DNA of 47,632 nt from a virus: positions 1 to 47,632 of the IMG/VR virus record IMGVR_UViG_3300013094_000090. One strand, written 5' to 3'. A model generated the notes under the pieces. That model was not told the DNA's origin. It saw nothing but the letters and a program-made list of their open reading frames with translations, and ran no database searches. Both the position numbers and the translations under genes were made by a program. This document shows, piece by piece, positions 261-11,910 of the stretch (position 1 is its first letter; every line of letters begins with the position of its first letter).

Positions 261-1274
261 ATGGCACTTGCAATTGATGGTACAGGCTCAGCTATTAGTA
301 GCCCAAATACTGTTGCTGGAGAATCAATATCTGTAAGTTTAACTACATCATTTAGTAATGATATTATTTTGGTTTATTGGCATGGGGAGTATCCAAGTGT
401 AAATAATGCAAATGTTACGAGTGTTACAGCATCTGGACTTACATTTCAAAGACGTTGGGCATATGATAACTCTGGCATGTCTACAGCAGGAACACAGCAA
501 CAAGAACTTTGGTGGGCAGTAGCAACAAACCCATTTAGTGGGCTTATAACATTGAATGTAAGCGGAAGTATTGATGATGCCAATGTAATTGCCTTTGGTG
601 TATCTGGTGCCAACGTTTCAAACCCTTGGGATTCAAACTCTTCATTACCTGCAAAATTAGGGTATAACGTTGGTGGAGCAAACATATCTACAAATTCAAG
701 CTCAGGAATGGTCTTAGCGTTTTGGGGAAGTCCAGGATATAACGGAAGTACAGCACCGCAGCCAACTGGTCTAACAAATATGACAAGCCTAGTAAATACA
801 TCGAATACTGGAGGTCAGTGGTTTGAATATGGTTTTACAGCATATGCAACAACATCTTCTGCGGTAAATAATATTTTTTATGGCTGGACTGGTTGGACCC
901 CAATATATGGGTCTCCTGGTGGAAACTCTTCTTATACTGTTCTTGATGCTCTTCAAGCACCAAACCCTGCCCCAACAACACCAACAATTGGAACAGTAAC
1001 TGTGATTAATTCTTCTACAATATCCATACCCTTTACTGGGGGCACAAATGCAACAAGCTTTACTGGGACCGCTACAAGCTCTTCTGGACCTATTACTTTG
1101 TCCATCTCTGGGACTTCTAGCCCCCTTGTAGCCACTGGTTCTTTTTCCTACAACTCTTCTTATTATGTAGTTATAACGGCTACTAATACCTATGGCTCCG
1201 CTACATCAGGCAATTCGAATACAATTATTCCTATAAATTCAGTAGGTAACTTCTCAGCGTTAGGATTTTGTTAA
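261..1274 (+). CDS. Putative tail fibre/appendage protein with Ig-like C-terminal region
   Basis: This 337-residue protein starts with MALAIDGTGSAISSPNTVAG one base after the preceding stop and ends in TAATG overlap with the next fibre gene. It has almost no charged residues and is dominated by Ser, Thr, Gly, Asn and aromatics, which is typical of secreted or virion beta-sandwich proteins. Residues about 1-230 look like one lectin- or concanavalin-like beta domain. After a Pro-rich linker (NPAPTTPTIGTVTV), residues about 235-325 read like a fibronectin III or Ig-like domain, with alternating strands and an NTYGSATSGNSN turn near the end. I infer a distal adsorption protein; no specific family was recognised with certainty. 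Confidence 0.6.
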   Translation: MALAIDGTGSAISSPNTVAGESISVSLTTSFSNDIILVYWHGEYPSVNNANVTSVTASGLTFQRRWAYDNSGMSTAGTQQQELWWAVATNPFSGLITLNVSGSIDDANVIAFGVSGANVSNPWDSNSSLPAKLGYNVGGANISTNSSSGMVLAFWGSPGYNGSTAPQPTGLTNMTSLVNTSNTGGQWFEYGFTAYATTSSAVNNIFYGWTGWTPIYGSPGGNSSYTVLDALQAPNPAPTTPTIGTVTVINSSTISIPFTGGTNATSFTGTATSSSGPITLSISGTSSPLVATGSFSYNSSYYVVITATNTYGSATSGNSNTIIPINSVGNFSALGFC

Positions 1275-2548
1275 TGGCATTACAATTTCCAGCGAGTCCT
1301 GTACAAAATCAAACCTACACATACAATGGTTTGACGTGGCAGTGGAATGGCGCTGCTTGGGACAACATCTCATCAGTCAGTAGCACTGCCTATGGCCACA
1401 ACTTTACCTTTGCTGCTGTTCCGCCATCCAACCCAAACATTGGCGATGAGTGGCTTGATTCTAACTCTGGTTCTGTTTATACATGGATGTCTGACCCTAA
1501 TGGTTTTCAGTGGATGGAAATCAACCCAGCTGGTTTTGCTGGTACACAGGGAATCCAAGGTATTCAAGGTGCATCATTCCAAGGTATTCAAGGCCTACAA
1601 GGTCAAGCAATTCAAGGCGTGCAAGGCCTTCAAGGTTTTCAGGGACTTCAAGGTATCCAAGGCTTCTTTGGTCTACAAGGTGTTCAAGGACCTAACGCAG
1701 CTATTGCATTTGGTGCAACTCCTCCAGCTAACCCTAATATTGGCGACCGTTGGGTAGATGCCAACTCTGGCTCTGAGTACACATGGATTAGCTACAGCGG
1801 AGTTACCGCATGGGTTGAAGTATCAGCCTCTGGTTACAGCGGTGTTCAAGGAATCCAAGGTATCCAAGGCCAATCAATTCAAGGCGTGCAGGGTATCCAA
1901 GGTAATCCTGGTATTCAAGGTTTTGGATACGCTCAGCTTCAAGGAACCCAAGGTCTGCAAGGATTTACAGGTACTCAAGGAACCTACTATATTTCTCAAA
2001 CAGCTCCTCTCGGAGTATCTGCAGGTAACGCTTGGTTAAACACCACCGACGGCTCTCTTTACATCTTTGATGGCAACGAGTGGTTTGAGCCATATGGAAA
2101 CTATCTTGGAGTTCAAGGATTACAGGGATTTCAAGGACCTTCTGGAATTTCGGGAAGTAACGGTTTTCAAGGAGTTCAGGGACTTGTAGGACCTGCAGGA
2201 GTTCAAGGAGCCACTGGTCCAGGAGTTCTTGCAATCAATAGCCAGTATGGTAGTACTTACACAGCAATTCTTAACGACGGCAACGCTTTTATTACCATGA
2301 GCAACGCAGGTGCTAACACATTTCTAATACCTACAGGAAACTCTGTTGGGTATCCAATAGGAACTTCTCTTACAGTTATGCAAGTTGGCTCTGGTCAAAC
2401 AACTATACAGGCTGCAAGCATTGGAGTGACAACCATTCTTTCAAATGCTTCAACTCCCTCATCTCCAAAACTTAGAACAGCTTTTTCATCAGCTACGCTG
2501 ATAAAGGCAGGCTCTGATTTATGGTACGTGGCTGGAGACATCTCTTAA
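1274..2548 (+). CDS. Collagen-like tail fibre protein 1
   Basis: The start is ATG 1274, in a TAATG overlap with the previous stop. The alternative TTG at 1268 would add two residues and break an N-terminal motif shared with the genes at 3505 and 5592 (MA-L/I-x-FPxxPxxNQxYxY, then W-x-W/F-x-G). That motif probably anchors fibres to the particle. Three G-x-Q collagen-like blocks (about residues 88-140, 188-236 and 278-316) alternate with GD-x-W modules such as NPNIGDRWVDANSGSEYTW. The C-terminal 100 residues end in LIKAGSDLWYVAGDIS, a common phage fibre tip. The 424-residue protein should form a trimeric fibre and is followed at once by a fibrinogen-like protein gene. Confidence 0.85.
   Translation: MALQFPASPVQNQTYTYNGLTWQWNGAAWDNISSVSSTAYGHNFTFAAVPPSNPNIGDEWLDSNSGSVYTWMSDPNGFQWMEINPAGFAGTQGIQGIQGASFQGIQGLQGQAIQGVQGLQGFQGLQGIQGFFGLQGVQGPNAAIAFGATPPANPNIGDRWVDANSGSEYTWISYSGVTAWVEVSASGYSGVQGIQGIQGQSIQGVQGIQGNPGIQGFGYAQLQGTQGLQGFTGTQGTYYISQTAPLGVSAGNAWLNTTDGSLYIFDGNEWFEPYGNYLGVQGLQGFQGPSGISGSNGFQGVQGLVGPAGVQGATGPGVLAINSQYGSTYTAILNDGNAFITMSNAGANTFLIPTGNSVGYPIGTSLTVMQVGSGQTTIQAASIGVTTILSNASTPSSPKLRTAFSSATLIKAGSDLWYVAGDIS
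1535..2225 (+). repeat. Collagen-like G-x-Q coding repeats, fibre 1
   Basis: Imperfect 9-nt units of the form GGT-NNN-CAA encode GIQ, GLQ, GVQ and GFQ triplets. They occur in three blocks, about 1538-1692, 1839-1980 and 2108-2222, separated by non-repeat modules. The same units and an identical GFGYAQLQG segment recur in the fibre gene at 3505, so the blocks are likely recombination substrates between the two genes. They are protein-coding repeats, not a CRISPR array. Confidence 0.85.
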
Positions 2549-2550
2549 TA

Positions 2551-3453
2551 ATGATTACTGTAGGAACGTCTGCTTCTAGTGTAGAGTCCCACACACCACT
2601 AGGAAACTATGCTAACCCTGCTTCGTCTATCTCAGCGTTAAGGGCTGCAGGCATAACTACTGAAGGTGTTTATTGGTTTTCAACGCCTTACTCGCCATCT
2701 GCATTTCAGGCTTACTGCAAGTTCTCATACATTGACGGAAACGATTGGGTTCTTTTATTAAAGGTGTTTAACAACGCAGACCTACCTTCTGGTAGCGGTT
2801 ATTGGATGGACAATAAAACTTTTAATGACACAGACTTTAATCTCACAAGCGGAACTTGGTCTAAATACAGGACATGGAACTACTATCCATTCAGCCATTT
2901 AATGATGAATATGGGCGGTAACTTTCCTCCTATAATGAACTTCTCGTCAACAAATACTATGTATAAAATCATTCAAGGTCAGCTTGTTAATGGGCAACCA
3001 GCCTACAACAACGCATACTTGGCAGTTTCAACAACACCAAGCCTTTCAGGTCATGCGACGATGGATTACTCAAATGCAACTCAGTTTCCTATGCTATCAG
3101 GTTCAAACTTTTCTAGAGCAAGCGGTGGACAAGAGCAGTATATAAACGCTTATGGAATATGTTCATGGAATGGTCAAGCATCTCATGCAAACACTTACAT
3201 ATCTGATTCCGCAAATGGCTCTTTGCCGACAGTGGCGTACAACGGAGCATGGATTGGTGCTCCGATGGATGAGGTAGCGTCATGGCCTTTTAATGTGTAC
3301 AACACTAATACTGGAGATACCTCAGACTCTGGATTTGGATTTGGTTTTAATGCTGGTAATGGAAACAGGACAGGGTCTTGTGGAATTGCGGAGTGGCAGC
3401 AAACTAACGACGCCGTAACTACGGCTCTTCCTGGGTATGTGTGGGTTAGATAA
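2551..3453 (+). CDS. Fibrinogen C-terminal-like (FReD-like) adsorption protein 1
   Basis: I place the start at ATG 2551, two bases after the collagen-like fibre stop. A longer in-frame ATG at 2521 would lie inside that gene. The 300-residue product shows the opening signature of fibrinogen-related domains: an Ala-rich helix, AGITTEGVYWF, a short loop, then AYCKFSYIDGNDWVLLLK, matching the family pattern DGxYxI...VYCDM...GGGWxxxxK. It ends with GFGFGFNAGNG, SCGIAEWQQ and PGYVWVR. In animals such domains bind acetylated sugars. The pairing with a collagen-like fibre suggests a distal sugar-binding head encoded as a separate polypeptide. It is paralogous to the gene at 4584 but diverged. Confidence 0.7.
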   Translation: MITVGTSASSVESHTPLGNYANPASSISALRAAGITTEGVYWFSTPYSPSAFQAYCKFSYIDGNDWVLLLKVFNNADLPSGSGYWMDNKTFNDTDFNLTSGTWSKYRTWNYYPFSHLMMNMGGNFPPIMNFSSTNTMYKIIQGQLVNGQPAYNNAYLAVSTTPSLSGHATMDYSNATQFPMLSGSNFSRASGGQEQYINAYGICSWNGQASHANTYISDSANGSLPTVAYNGAWIGAPMDEVASWPFNVYNTNTGDTSDSGFGFGFNAGNGNRTGSCGIAEWQQTNDAVTTALPGYVWVR

Positions 3454-3504
3454 ATTAAAAAAGGTATACTTTTATCAAAATTATTAAGGATATGGGGAGA
3501 GTAA

Positions 3505-4584
3505 ATGGCTATCAGTTTTCCAGTTAACCCCGTCCTTAATCAGACATATTCATATGGCGGACGAGGCTGGATATGGAACGGTACTGTCTGGAAATCTGTA
3601 GGAACCACTGTTGGTAGCCAAGGCGTACAAGGTATTGCTGGCCAAAATGGTACTCAAGGCCTGCAGGGACTGCAGGGACCAAACGCTGCTCTTAGCTTTG
3701 GCGCTACTCCGCCACTAAGCCCTAACGTAGGAGACCGCTGGGTTGATTCTGGCTCAGGCTCTACTTATACATGGATGACTACAGATGGAGTTGATTACTT
3801 CTGGGTAGAAGTTAACGCCTCAGGTTTCTCTGGTGTTCAGGGTATTCGTGGTTTCCAAGGAATCCAAGGTGGACAAGGTCTACAGGGAAATGTTGGCGCA
3901 CAAGGCTTTGGCTATGCGCAGCTCCAAGGATTGCAAGGTATCCAAGGCATCTACGGACAAACAGGTATCCAAGGTAATCAAGGTTTTCAAGGAGTGCAGG
4001 GCTTTGGATACGCACAGCTCCAAGGTATTCAAGGTGTGCAAGGAAACTTTGGACCACAAGGAATCCAAGGCGGCATTGGTATTAATGGCGTGCAAGGCCT
4101 GCAGGGAACTCAAGGAATCCAAGGAGCATACCCTTCAACAGCGGGCGTTCAATACACGTCTGCGTTCTTTAATGGAACAACCTCTATTGCACAGATGCTC
4201 GAAGCAACTTATTTATCTGGTGTCGCTCTAACAACAGGTGTCAACAACTACTCTGTGTTAACTCAGGGCGGAATTACGTTTTACACAGTAGCGTCTACAG
4301 GTAACTGGACTCTTAACGTGACAGGTATTGCTGGAGGAACAACCCTCGGTTCTCTTATGAACATAGGTCAAACTCTTACTATTGCAGTACTTGCAACTAA
4401 CGGCGCGACCCCCTACTACCAGTCAGCTATGCAGATTGATGGAGCAGCTGTTACTCCTAAGTGGGCTTTTGGTTCTGCGCCTATTGCTGGAGATGCAAAC
4501 GCCATCGACTTGTATTCATTCTCTATTCTTAAAATAGCCTCTGCTACCTATACGGTTATAGGCTCCTACACAAAGTACGCATAA
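3505..4584 (+). CDS. Collagen-like tail fibre protein 2
   Basis: This 359-residue fibre has an SD-like GGGGAGAG about five bases before ATG 3505. It repeats the anchor motif (MAISFPVNPVLNQTYSYGG), a short G-x-Q block (about residues 37-59), one GD-x-W module (SPNVGDRWVDSGSGSTYTW) and a long G-x-Q block (about residues 109-208) containing GFGYAQLQG twice. The C-terminal about 145 residues (TYLSGVALTTG, then GNWTLNVTG, QIDGAAVTPKW, and SILKIASATYTVIGS) form a globular tip type widely used by cyanophage and pelagic phage fibres. The tip differs from that of fibre 1, so the genes share a stem and anchor but carry different heads. Its stop overlaps the next start (TAATG). Confidence 0.85.
   Translation: MAISFPVNPVLNQTYSYGGRGWIWNGTVWKSVGTTVGSQGVQGIAGQNGTQGLQGLQGPNAALSFGATPPLSPNVGDRWVDSGSGSTYTWMTTDGVDYFWVEVNASGFSGVQGIRGFQGIQGGQGLQGNVGAQGFGYAQLQGLQGIQGIYGQTGIQGNQGFQGVQGFGYAQLQGIQGVQGNFGPQGIQGGIGINGVQGLQGTQGIQGAYPSTAGVQYTSAFFNGTTSIAQMLEATYLSGVALTTGVNNYSVLTQGGITFYTVASTGNWTLNVTGIAGGTTLGSLMNIGQTLTIAVLATNGATPYYQSAMQIDGAAVTPKWAFGSAPIAGDANAIDLYSFSILKIASATYTVIGSYTKYA
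3829..4128 (+). repeat. Collagen-like G-x-Q coding repeats, fibre 2
   Basis: About 300 bases of imperfect GGN-NNN-CAA units encode GIQ, GLQ, GVQ, GFQ and GNQ triplets. The segment encoding GFGYAQLQG occurs twice here and once in the fibre gene at 1274, so part of the repeat was shared or exchanged between the two genes. The repeat lies entirely within an open frame. Confidence 0.85.
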
Positions 4585-5504
4585 TGCCTACATTAGGAGC
4601 GCTGGGAGGAACCAGTAATAAAGGCTTCTTGCCAGCTAGAACATTGCCAGGAACGGGATTAAACCCATCTGCTCCTGGTGCTTCAGCTAAAGCTCTTCAG
4701 TCAGCATATGGCTACACAACCGACGGAATCTACTGGATTAACGTCAACAGCCAGTCAACTCCTGTGTATTGCATCATGAATCCCGCAGTAGCTGGTGGGG
4801 GTTGGATGATGATTATGAAAGCTACTACAGGAAATACTTTTCAATATAGCTCTCCTCATTGGACTACTGCAACAACGCTAAATCCTGGAGACACCACAAG
4901 AAATAACGCGGACGCAAAGTTCAACACATTTAATTACACACCTGGCACAGACTTGCTTGCCATCTTTCCAGATAGCCCTAACCAAGGTGGTTCTATATCT
5001 GTATCTGGCTATAACTGGACGTGGTACCAACCAAGCTTTGGTTCAGCCTCAGGATTTAACTCAGGGCAAGCAATCAGTGCGTTACAGCTTTTTGGTGGAG
5101 GTCAACCAACAACAGGAGGTAACTCAGGCTCTGGTGGACAAAACTGGGGTGGAACTGGTTGGTACATTCAGAGAGCTGATACATACGCTGGATGGAACAA
5201 TGCTGGAGCTGGTCCGAACATCTTCTCATCTCAAACCGATATCCACTTTTACGGATTTAACTACAGTAACTATGGAAATAGCAATGCAAACGTTCGTTGG
5301 GGATTTGGTTGGAACGAGAACTCTGAGGGGTATTGGCCGTCCAACAACGTTGCATATATTGGTACAAATGACGTGACAGGTGGAATTGGCCTTAACTACG
5401 CAGGAACTCCAGGAACTACAGCCTCTGCGGGTGACTACTACAACTGCTGTCAGAACGTTACAGGCTTAAATCGCTCTATGCGCGTAGAGATGTACATCCG
5501 ATAA
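4584..5504 (+). CDS. Fibrinogen C-terminal-like (FReD-like) adsorption protein 2
   Basis: This 306-residue protein begins in a TAATG overlap with collagen-like fibre 2. It carries the clearest fibrinogen-related-domain signature in the window: GYTTDGIYWINVNSQ, TPVYCIMNPAVAGGGWMMIM and KATTGNTFQYSSPHW, followed by NNADAKFNTFNY and closing with NRSMRVEMYIR, analogous to the SMKIRP-like end of animal domains. Two adjacent Cys (NCCQN) lie near the C-terminus. By family analogy it would bind a surface glycan. Tight coupling to the fibre gene implies coordinated synthesis and probably physical assembly on the fibre tip. Glycan binding is inferred; the fold assignment is by motif only. Confidence 0.75.
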   Translation: MPTLGALGGTSNKGFLPARTLPGTGLNPSAPGASAKALQSAYGYTTDGIYWINVNSQSTPVYCIMNPAVAGGGWMMIMKATTGNTFQYSSPHWTTATTLNPGDTTRNNADAKFNTFNYTPGTDLLAIFPDSPNQGGSISVSGYNWTWYQPSFGSASGFNSGQAISALQLFGGGQPTTGGNSGSGGQNWGGTGWYIQRADTYAGWNNAGAGPNIFSSQTDIHFYGFNYSNYGNSNANVRWGFGWNENSEGYWPSNNVAYIGTNDVTGGIGLNYAGTPGTTASAGDYYNCCQNVTGLNRSMRVEMYIR

Positions 5505-5544: not shown

Positions 5545-5591
5545 TTATACTGATTACTGAGTCCACAAAGAAAAGGTGAGTGCTGTCAACT

Positions 5592-6101
5592 ATGGCAATT
5601 AACTTTCCGCTAAACCCAACAGTAAACCAGGTCTATACCTACGGTAACCGTACATGGACATTTACTGGTTACGGTTGGCAAGCTACAACTACGTCCCTGG
5701 GACCTCAGGGTATCCAGGGTCTACAAGGCCCTGCAGGAGCTTCGGCTGCTGCTCTAGACGTCACCATTCTGGATAACATCCGCCAATTATTTAACAACTT
5801 CGACAGGGTATTTACTCCTACCTATGAAGGTAACCCAGTAAGTATCACCAACCCAGGTCTCCTCGAGGTTTACCTCAACGGAGTCAAGCAAAAAGTCCTT
5901 ATGTCGACCCCGACTTGGATGAGTTATTTTGTAGCTGAGCCAGCTACAATTGCAGTTAATAACGACGGAAACATTGCTTGGACATCTGCTCCAGCAGCTG
6001 GTTCCATGTTTGAAGGAATAATTGTTGTAGGCGCGACTACAACAAGTAATACAACTAACTATCCATTTGCGCCAATGGATTTAATGATGGGAGCTCTCTA
6101 A
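5592..6101 (+). CDS. Short fibre/baseplate-associated protein with shared fibre anchor
   Basis: I choose ATG 5592, because the protein then begins MAINFPLNPTVNQVYTYGNR, aligning with the anchors of the fibres at 1274 and 3505. The AAAAGGTGAG at 5571-5580 gives a usable ribosome-binding site, whereas the in-frame GTG at 5580 overlaps it. The 169-residue product has only two or three G-x-Q/P triplets (GPQGIQGLQGPAG) and then a distinct 110-residue domain with FTPTYEGNPVSITNPG and LEVYLNGVKQKVL. That domain resembles tail proteins that describe a user-like attachment strand (SITNPG...LEVYLNGV). It precedes the giant virion protein gene by two bases. Confidence 0.65.
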   Translation: MAINFPLNPTVNQVYTYGNRTWTFTGYGWQATTTSLGPQGIQGLQGPAGASAAALDVTILDNIRQLFNNFDRVFTPTYEGNPVSITNPGLLEVYLNGVKQKVLMSTPTWMSYFVAEPATIAVNNDGNIAWTSAPAAGSMFEGIIVVGATTTSNTTNYPFAPMDLMMGAL

Positions 6102-10330: not shown

Positions 10331-11353
10331 GTGAACCTTGTTAAATATGTAGTAGACCATGGCGGAAAACTTGCGCCCCTTGTTATTGATAAAGGGTTGA
10401 CGGCAGGCACAGGGTTGATGAACCCATCTGTATTTGTTGACAGTGATGGCGATATTCTCGTTAATTTACGCCACGTTAACTACACGCTCTACCACTCAGA
10501 GAACATGCAGCGTTTCCCTTCAAAGTGGGGTCCTCTTGCTTATTTGCATCCTGAGAAAGATATGCGCCTTGTAACTGAGAACTACCTCATGCGCTTAGAC
10601 AATAACCTTGATGTCATTAACCATACCAAGGTGACCATGACTCACGATGTAGCCCCTCTGTGGGAGTTTGTTGGTTTAGAAGATGCCCGTCTTGTTCAAT
10701 GGGATAACGACTACTACCTGATTGGTGTTAGACGAGATACGACGACCAACGGAGAAGGTCGTATGGAATATACCAAGATTGCTATCGATAAGAAGAACTG
10801 GGAAGTCCACGAGCAATGGAGAACAAGAATCCCTACGCCAGGAGCTAACGACTCTTACTGTGAAAAGAACTGGGTACCTGTTATTGACAAGCCATACCAC
10901 TTTATCAAGTGGACTATACCTACTGAGCTAGTTCACTCAACTCCGTTCAACCCATCAACAACTGTTCAGGTACTTTTAAAAGAGCCGCCGTTTCCCCCAC
11001 CCGCAGACCAAAGAGGAAGTTCTCACGTCTTTACTTGGGGTGACTTCTATGTCTCTATCACCCACGAAGTAAATTTGTTTAAGAACTACCTTCAACAGAA
11101 AGATGGACGCTACCGACATCGGTTCGTTGTATGGGACAAAGACTTTAATATGGTGGGCTTGTCTAACTCATTTACCTTCCTGGAAGGCCATATTGAGTTC
11201 TGCGTAGGAGCTGCCGTATATGAAGGCGACCTTCTTATTAGTTTTGGATTTCAGGACAATGCAGCGTTTATCCTTAGAACGCCTGGGGAACTCATTAACA
11301 ATATAGTTAACTCTGCAATAACAGAAGGCATTGAGGGAAACCTATGGAAATAG
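10331..11353 (+). CDS. Five-bladed beta-propeller glycosidase-like protein (GH130/GH43-like)
   Basis: The 340-residue product starts at GTG 10331. It shows the periodic blade motifs of the GH130/GH43/GH32 propeller superfamily: LMNPSVFVDSDGDILVNLRH near residue 35, FVGLEDARLVQWDNDYYLIG near 116, EKNWVPVIDKPYHF near 178, RGSSHVFTWGDFYVSITHE near 229, and HIEFCVGAAVYEGDLLISFG near 285. In GH130 enzymes the ED-x-R-like and KNW-like motifs line the active site, but I cannot assign catalytic acids or a substrate. It may cleave or bind host surface glycans, or modify virion glycans. The next gene overlaps it by ten bases, suggesting a functional pair. Confidence 0.65.
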   Translation: MNLVKYVVDHGGKLAPLVIDKGLTAGTGLMNPSVFVDSDGDILVNLRHVNYTLYHSENMQRFPSKWGPLAYLHPEKDMRLVTENYLMRLDNNLDVINHTKVTMTHDVAPLWEFVGLEDARLVQWDNDYYLIGVRRDTTTNGEGRMEYTKIAIDKKNWEVHEQWRTRIPTPGANDSYCEKNWVPVIDKPYHFIKWTIPTELVHSTPFNPSTTVQVLLKEPPFPPPADQRGSSHVFTWGDFYVSITHEVNLFKNYLQQKDGRYRHRFVVWDKDFNMVGLSNSFTFLEGHIEFCVGAAVYEGDLLISFGFQDNAAFILRTPGELINNIVNSAITEGIEGNLWK

Positions 11354-11910
11354 CAGCACTGATTGGGGACTTATCTCAAGACCCTTTTAACCCTGAGCTT
11401 AACTTTGCGACAGCACTTGAATACGAAAGATTAAACCAAACAGCCTCCGCAGTTTCATTCTTTCTTAGAACAGTTGAGTATGGAAATGAGGCGGATAACG
11501 CAGAGATTATCTACATATCCCTCCTCAAGCTAGCCCACTGCTTAGCTGACCAGAACGACCGAGAGCACTCAGTGACTAACGCGTATCTTCAAGCGTTGAC
11601 AGTCTGCCCTGACCGCCCCGAGGCGTACTTCCTAATGTCTCAATACTGTGAGCAGAAGCAAGAATGGCAAGAAGCCTACACATGGGCAAGACTAGGAAAA
11701 AATGTTATTAAGGTACACGGCTACTTGGCCCTTACACATAATGTTAAATACCCAGGTGAGTATGGGCTTGATTATGAGATGGCAGTGAGTTCTTGGTATA
11801 TCGGTCGACAGGTAGAATCGATTACCCTGTTTGAAGTCCTTGAAAAGAGCGAGATTGCTCCTGAATATAAAGCCTCGGTTAAGAGCAACTTAAAGTTCAT
11901 ACGAGGATAA
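11344..11910 (+). CDS. TPR-like helical-repeat protein
   Basis: This 188-residue protein overlaps the propeller gene by ten bases. It is all-helical, with repeat signatures of the TPR type: LNFATALEYERLNQTASAVS near residue 19, a second helix pair around LLKLAHCLADQND, and AYFLMSQYCEQKQEWQEAYT near 97. TPR proteins of this kind often accompany sugar-active enzymes in phage and giant-virus genomes. Here the tight coupling suggests a scaffold or chaperone for the propeller protein. That partnership is inferred from gene order only. There is no signal peptide or membrane segment. Confidence 0.6.
   Translation: MEIAALIGDLSQDPFNPELNFATALEYERLNQTASAVSFFLRTVEYGNEADNAEIIYISLLKLAHCLADQNDREHSVTNAYLQALTVCPDRPEAYFLMSQYCEQKQEWQEAYTWARLGKNVIKVHGYLALTHNVKYPGEYGLDYEMAVSSWYIGRQVESITLFEVLEKSEIAPEYKASVKSNLKFIRG

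What the first reader, a model, noticed from the sequence alone, without database searches (positions are those of the whole stretch)
1274..5504. Two collagen-like + fibrinogen-like gene pairs resembling split ficolins
Seen: a G-x-Q repeat fibre gene is immediately followed by a protein with a fibrinogen-C-terminal-like signature, twice in a row (1274/2551 and 3505/4584), with 2-base spacing or TAATG overlap. Known: animal ficolins join a collagen stalk to a fibrinogen domain that recognises acetylated sugars. Inference: this phage encodes the same architecture as two separate polypeptides and carries two versions, possibly for two host glycans.
Basis: partly seen in the sequence, partly recalled or inferred. 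Interest (0 to 1): 0.65.

Follow-up and report, generated by a model that had tools for sequence, protein, structure and literature searches.

The report
Phage fibres with plug-in intelectin-like heads
This virus of bacteria encodes two collagen-like fibres, each followed by a separate sugar-binding-type head protein; the better-modelled head has the fold of the animal immune lectin intelectin, not ficolin, and seems to plug onto its fibre with a short docking tag that many unrelated phage heads share.

Summary
ORFs 1274-2548 and 3505-4584 are collagen-repeat fibres, and each is followed directly by a ~300-residue head (2551-3453, 4584-5504). The 'split ficolin' reading is only partly right. 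The 4584 head carries a sub-threshold fibrinogen-like 'GGGW' signature. Its predicted fold matches intelectins over its full length (Z 13.8-14.3, 218-227 residues) far better than ficolins (Z at most 7.7, ~167 residues). Among solved structures, profile search hits only intelectin-type lectins. The 2551 head is a distant homologue, secure only over its first ~100 residues. Collagen is not the conserved partner. Only two other phages found, from one lineage, pair a collagen fibre with this head; most relatives fuse the domain to other tail proteins. What is conserved is the fibre's C-terminal cap (phrog_5906-like). In unrelated phages it is followed by a separate head opening with an anchor peptide like MPLLGTRGAASAKGFGF (53 of 64 adjacent genes versus 8 of 603 other ORFs). 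After the anchor, heads fall into ~25 unrelated groups (glycine-rich, LamG-like, intelectin-type). The 4584 head has this anchor; 2551 does not. Best reading: a T2/S16 gp37-gp38-like fibre with exchangeable tip adhesin, here intelectin-fold. Docking and glycan binding are inferred, not shown.

The parts
1274..2548 (+). Fibre 1: N-terminal module MALQFPASPVQNQTYTYNG..W shared with 3505 and 5592, three collagen-like blocks (42 triplets), C-terminal domain weakly like phrog_8780 minor tail protein
   Evidence: Pfam Collagen 2.4e-14; phrog_8780 1.6e-12 on residues 325-423; triplets; N-termini
2551..3453 (+). Head 1: divergent fibrinogen/intelectin-superfamily head, no detectable docking anchor; residues ~20-120 confidently modelled
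   Evidence: hhalign to the 4584 family E 5.8e-9; model pLDDT 58 overall, 76-92 for residues ~21-120; best fold intelectin-1 Z 10.6 with trimming off; one relative, L081
3505..4584 (+). Fibre 2: same N-terminal module, four collagen-like blocks (39 triplets), C-terminal cap
   Evidence: Pfam Collagen 7.2e-13; phrog_5906 9.8e-25 on residues 231-358
4192..4581 (+). Fibre 2 C-terminal cap, conserved in many phages and usually followed by an anchored head gene
   Evidence: 412 related stretches in viral contigs; 53/64 adjacent genes carry the anchor
4584..5504 (+). Head 2: intelectin-fold (X-type lectin-like) tip protein
   Evidence: 80 relatives in viral contigs; AF2 pLDDT 81.2, pTM 0.82; intelectins Z 13.8-14.3
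4584..4646 (+). Putative docking anchor of head 2, MPTLGALGGTSNKGFLPARTL
   Evidence: Best of all window starts on both strands with an anchor HMM trained on non-intelectin heads of other phages (10.4 bits; next window start 5.7)
5580..6101 (+). Third short fibre-like ORF with the same N-terminal module (ATG 5592) and 5 collagen triplets; not followed by a head
   Evidence: syntenic in L001 and L015
6104..10273 (+). Large virion structural protein downstream of the cassette, marker of the phage lineage
   Evidence: phrog_5838 E 6e-241; same order in L001 and L015

Best explanation
The region encodes two collagen-shaft tail fibres of a myovirus, each with its own separately encoded tip adhesin. 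For 3505/4584 the mechanism is most likely that of the T2/S16 gp37-gp38 fibre: the trimeric fibre ends in a cap domain, and a head made from the next gene docks onto that cap through a short N-terminal anchor and presents a receptor-binding domain, which here has the intelectin fold. Cap and anchor act as socket and plug, so phages can exchange heads of unrelated fold. Shown here: the genes, the collagen repeats, the homology of the two heads over ~100 N-terminal residues, the intelectin-like predicted fold of 4584, and the statistical association of cap with anchor across phages. Inferred: physical docking, glycan recognition and its calcium dependence. The 1274/2551 pair is probably a related fibre-plus-head unit, but its cap and head N-terminus differ, so its attachment is unknown.
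For: Collagen repeats. The window encodes tail sheath, tail tube and baseplate proteins, so a contractile-tailed phage. Intelectin fold: Z 13.8-14.3, 218-227 residues spanning 28-306, against 7.7 at most for ficolins and other fibrinogen domains; Foldseek top four all intelectin-type lectins; hmmsearch of the 54-sequence profile against solved structures gives four hits, all intelectin-type, E 0.0022-0.014. Anchor: 53/64 genes adjacent to a cap score at least 10 bits with a cross-validated anchor HMM, against 8/603 other ORFs, and seven of those eight are heads encoded elsewhere in loci whose cap gene lacks an adjacent anchored head. Anchor HMM trained without intelectin heads ranks 4584 first among window starts. 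In loci fetched by the intelectin domain, all six ORFs with an anchor of at least 5 bits follow a cap fibre, against 3 of 56 without. 63 caps form one blastp cluster; their heads form 25. In MW202481 the gene after the cap is annotated phage tail fiber adhesin gp38. In T2 the gp38 N-terminus interacts with gp37, and swapping the N-terminal 113 residues restored compatibility (PMC12892980). L015 carries the same tandem: collagen + LamG-like head, collagen + intelectin-type head.
Against: No structure of a cap-anchor complex could be predicted. The window's own anchor is weak (10.4 bits, E 0.021). The anchor may mark a chaperone or assembly interface rather than a permanent joint. Related sequences inflate the association counts. 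L016, L034 and L050 have a cap fibre but no detectable anchor. No glycan data exist; of the human ligand residues only Asn260 and Pro273 have a conserved counterpart in the alignment (N244, P252). 2551 lacks the anchor, and more than half of its model is low confidence.
Confidence: 0.72

Rival explanations
1. Split ficolins: ficolin-type fibrinogen domains that pair specifically with collagen stalks and bind acetylated sugars.
For: Collagen fibre directly upstream of a fibrinogen-superfamily domain, twice; ficolin domains do align with the model (Z 7.7).
Against: Intelectins match far better and over the full length; Pfam PF00147 does not hit; most relatives are not paired with collagen; the same fibre cap carries non-fibrinogen heads.
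Confidence: 0.08
2. The downstream proteins are tail-fibre chaperones (like T4 gp38, Pam3 gp25 or Alteromonas phage V22 gp27) that fold the fibre tip and are then released; the cap itself binds the host.
For: Chaperones are typically encoded directly downstream of the fibre gene; Pam3 gp25 and V22 gp27 are absent from the final fibre (PMC9608196; PMC7289586).
Against: Chaperones acting on one conserved cap should be conserved, but here the caps form one cluster and the heads 25; heads have lectin or glycine-rich adhesin domains; the same intelectin domain is the C-terminal part of larger fused tail proteins and bacterial secreted proteins.
Confidence: 0.12
3. 2551 and 4584 are not functionally equivalent: 4584 is a docked lectin head, whereas 2551 is a diverged or decaying copy that attaches differently or belongs to another structure.
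For: 2551 has no anchor, its fibre has another C-terminus with no relatives found, it has one distant relative, and its C-terminal part is not confidently modelled.
Against: Intact 300-codon ORF in the same tandem position with 2-base spacing; L015 shows a similar tandem with two different heads.
Confidence: 0.3

Closest known systems
Intelectins / X-type lectins (human intelectin-1, Xenopus XEEL, lamprey serum lectin)
   Same: Fibrinogen-like N-terminal GGGW segment, full-length predicted fold (Z ~14), aligned aspartates D110 and D263 matching D133 and D282, the positions that coordinate the buried calcium in the lamprey lectin (PMC9682848)
   Different: Phage protein with 3 cysteines rather than the conserved eight; N-terminal fibre anchor; ligand residues mostly not conserved; about 14% identity; separate collagen shaft
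T2/S16/PP01 gp37-gp38 tail fibre and tip adhesin
   Same: Adhesin encoded as a separate protein directly after the fibre gene, attached by its N-terminus, variable receptor-binding part; one cap neighbour is annotated gp38 (PMC12892980)
   Different: 4584 has no polyglycine sandwich; shaft is collagen-like; anchor is a ~20-residue peptide rather than a ~110-residue segment; cap family differs
Ficolins
   Same: Collagen part plus fibrinogen-superfamily recognition domain
   Different: Two polypeptides, intelectin-type fold, no Fibrinogen_C hit
Cyanophage fibrinogen-domain and phrog_1325 proteins (P-HM2, S-H9-1, P-TIM40)
   Same: Same domain by sequence (34-44% identity) and fold
   Different: In the Kyanoviridae locus inspected (S-H9-1) the domain ends a 323-aa protein with no collagen or anchor
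GGGWT_bact NF040941 bacterial domain
   Same: N-terminal 46-residue signature, E 6.9e-6
   Different: Below the curated cut-off; covers only the first part of the domain

Membership tests
Ficolin | Collagen-like and fibrinogen domains in one polypeptide | tested here: not met
   Separate ORFs with stop codons between them
Ficolin | Fibrinogen C-terminal domain (PF00147) | tested here: not met
   No hit even at E 5; no match in the window (that family search also rang in no control genome)
Ficolin | Ficolin-type fold as best structural match | tested here: not met
   Ficolins Z at most 7.7 against intelectins 13.8-14.3
Intelectin / X-type lectin | Whole intelectin fold (fibrinogen-like lobe plus intelectin-specific part) | tested here: met
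   For the 4584 model: Z 13.8-14.3, residues 28-306 aligned, rmsd 3.5-3.9; prediction, not experiment. 2551 only tentatively
Intelectin / X-type lectin | Buried calcium site aspartates (D133, D282 in human intelectin-1) | tested here: inconclusive
   D110 (52/54) and D263 (54/54) align by profile; no coordinates available to check geometry
Intelectin / X-type lectin | Ligand residues 243, 244, 260, 262, 263, 274, 288, 297 | tested here: inconclusive
   N244 (54/54) aligns with N260; no clear counterpart for H263, E274, W288, Y297 in a low-confidence global alignment (residues from PMC8324875)
Intelectin / X-type lectin | Conserved cysteines of vertebrate intelectins | tested here: not met
   Only C63, C288, C289; eight conserved per PMC9682848. 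A vertebrate trait, so this bears on orthology rather than on fold
Intelectin / X-type lectin | Calcium-dependent glycan binding | not testable with these tools
   Needs protein
T2-type gp37/gp38 fibre | Separate adhesin gene next to the fibre gene | tested here: met
T2-type gp37/gp38 fibre | N-terminal docking of the adhesin to the fibre tip | tested here: inconclusive
   Conserved cap-anchor association; no complex modelled
T2-type gp37/gp38 fibre | Polyglycine II sandwich receptor domain | tested here: not met
   4584 is modelled as intelectin-like; glycine-rich heads occur on other phages' caps
Collagen-like phage fibre | Gly-X-Y repeats above the Pfam cut-off | tested here: met
   53.3 and 48.5 bits against a cut-off of 27.2

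The most novel reading that the evidence does not exclude
Phages carry true intelectin-type (X-type) lectins as interchangeable receptor-binding heads, plugged onto tail fibres by a cap-anchor joint that also takes unrelated heads. [quoted passage not shown]
Probability: 0.45. Interest if true: 0.8.

Novelty: new variant of a known kind. Interest (0 to 1): 0.6.

Why it matters
If the cap-anchor joint is real, one short peptide would identify tip adhesins in many uncultured aquatic and other environmental phages whose receptor-binding proteins are now annotated as hypothetical, and it offers a simple rule for pairing fibres with heads. An intelectin-fold adhesin in phages would also give a testable source for a fold known mainly from chordate immunity.

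Tried and rejected
Direct phmmer of either head against solved structures: nothing. More relatives of 2551: three viral scans gave only L081, and cultured phages gave none. Relatives of the 1274 C-terminus: none confirmed (after a frame error). Combined-alignment model of 2551: only residues ~20-120 confident, and the alignment mixes in the 4584 family, so its intelectin match (Z 10.6) may be biased. A hand-made anchor regular expression was too loose and was replaced by cross-validated HMMs. A window-wide Fibrinogen_C search was uninformative because the family rang in no control. Primary paper on intelectin-1 (PMC4526365) not held. Considered and rejected: collagen as the conserved partner (only 2 of 62 distinct intelectin-type ORFs follow a collagen fibre).

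Full report
Observation. 1274-2548 and 3505-4584 hit Pfam Collagen well above cut-off. They hold 42 and 39 Gly-X-Y triplets in runs, with Gln at Y in 25 of each. Head genes follow after 2 bases (2551) or with a one-base TAATG overlap (4584). The record is a 47.6-kb virus contig with tail sheath, tube, baseplate and replication genes, so a contractile-tailed phage; the host is unknown. The two fibres are paralogous (40-55% identity over segments). They share an N-terminal module with a third short fibre-like ORF at 5592.

Head 4584. Public models see only a sub-threshold fibrinogen-like GGGW segment (NF040941, E 6.9e-6) and phrog_1325 of unknown function. One viral scan returned 80 loci. From 54 non-redundant members AlphaFold2 gave a model with pLDDT 81.2 and pTM 0.82. 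Foldseek ranks intelectin-type lectins first. VIA-align gives Z 13.8-14.3 for human intelectin-1, Xenopus XEEL and lamprey serum lectin over 218-227 residues, and at most 7.7 for ficolins and other fibrinogen domains. The family profile searched against all solved-structure sequences hits only those lectins (E 0.0022-0.014). So the fold is intelectin-like, not ficolin-like. In the profile alignment the two aspartates matching the buried calcium site (D110, D263) are conserved. Of the ligand positions only N260 (and its neighbour P273, not itself a ligand) has a clear counterpart, so the specificity is open. A lamprey lectin paper proposes a phage origin for the fibrinogen-like part but states that phages lack the intelectin domain (PMC9682848); the model here argues otherwise.

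Head 2551. No public family recognises it. Profile comparison ties its first ~100 residues to the 4584 family (E 5.8e-9). Its model is confident only for residues ~20-120, and its intelectin match (Z 10.6) leans on low-confidence parts. Only one relative was found.

Is the pairing conserved? Most intelectin-type relatives are not paired with collagen. Of 62 distinct ORFs only those in L001 and L015 directly follow a collagen fibre, and both share the window's downstream genes (168-173 aa and 1383-1389 aa), so this is one lineage. Most others are the C-terminal part of larger tail proteins, or occur in bacterial secreted proteins. In L015 the tandem recurs as collagen plus LamG-like head, then collagen plus intelectin-type head. 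The LamG assignment of that head rests on its sequence pattern and on phrog matches; Pfam gave no hit for it, though a similar protein in L014 hits Laminin_G_3.

What is conserved is the fibre cap. A scan with the C-terminal ~130 residues of 3505 and relatives found 412 related stretches and returned 79 loci. Almost all are followed at once by a separate protein that opens with a peptide like MPLLGTRGAASAKGFGF. In a five-fold cross-validated test, 53 of 64 adjacent ORFs scored at least 10 bits with an anchor HMM, against 8 of 603 other ORFs. Seven of those eight were heads encoded elsewhere in loci whose cap gene lacks an adjacent anchored head. Fisher p values are very small but overstate the case because the sequences are related. 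The caps form one blastp cluster of 63, the heads 25 clusters, including glycine-rich (PF21722), LamG-like and intelectin types. An anchor HMM trained without any intelectin-type head ranks the 4584 start first of all starts in the window (10.4 bits, next 5.7) and does not detect 2551. In the loci fetched by the intelectin domain, all six ORFs with an anchor follow a cap, against 3 of 56 without. In a podovirus record (MW202481) the gene after the cap is annotated tail fiber adhesin gp38, and Roseobacter phage CRP-3 has an anchored protein after its cap gene.

Mechanism. This matches the T2/S16 plan, in which gp38 sits on the gp37 trimer and its N-terminus decides compatibility (PMC12892980). 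I propose that the 3505 cap is the socket, the 4584 anchor the plug and the intelectin-fold domain the receptor binder, probably for a surface glycan. Docking and binding are inferences. The main rival is a released chaperone, as in Pam3 and V22; it explains gene order but not why heads vary so much on a constant cap. Collagen-like phage fibres, gp38 adhesins and fibrinogen-annotated cyanophage proteins are known, so this is a new variant. The intelectin fold in phages and the shared anchor did not turn up in the papers I could search, which cover only openly licensed literature.

Noticed in passing
5580-6101: Short fibre-like ORF (ATG 5592) with the same N-terminal module as both fibres and five collagen triplets, not followed by a head; syntenic in L001 and L015.
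   Followed up: partly
L180, L181, L183, L206, L208 and other genome-contig loci: The intelectin-type domain also ends secreted Bacteroidota proteins of ~480 aa (often next to another ORF of similar length) and occurs in proteins with pilin-like N-terminal leaders (L206, L208).
   Followed up: partly
L077 5001-5749: Intelectin-type gene broken by several stop codons in a viral contig.
   Followed up: no
L014 2610-5816: Laminin_G_3 lectin protein next to, and a LamG-like region apparently fused to, the intelectin-type domain.
   Followed up: no
L211 1851-5690: Actinomycetia phage DSL-LC01 has collagen genes, a cap fibre and then a YHYH-domain head with a weak anchor-like start.
   Followed up: partly
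L103, L105, L106, L107, L108, L112, L151: Phages with a 231-residue cap fibre whose anchored head is encoded upstream of it rather than next to it downstream.
   Followed up: partly
20-259 and 261-1274: Two ORFs upstream of the first fibre; 261-1274 has no family match, 20-259 weakly matches phrog_3030.
   Followed up: no
11344-11910: Weak match to a phage glycosyltransferase (phrog_13126, E 1.1e-5) downstream of the virion protein.
   Followed up: no
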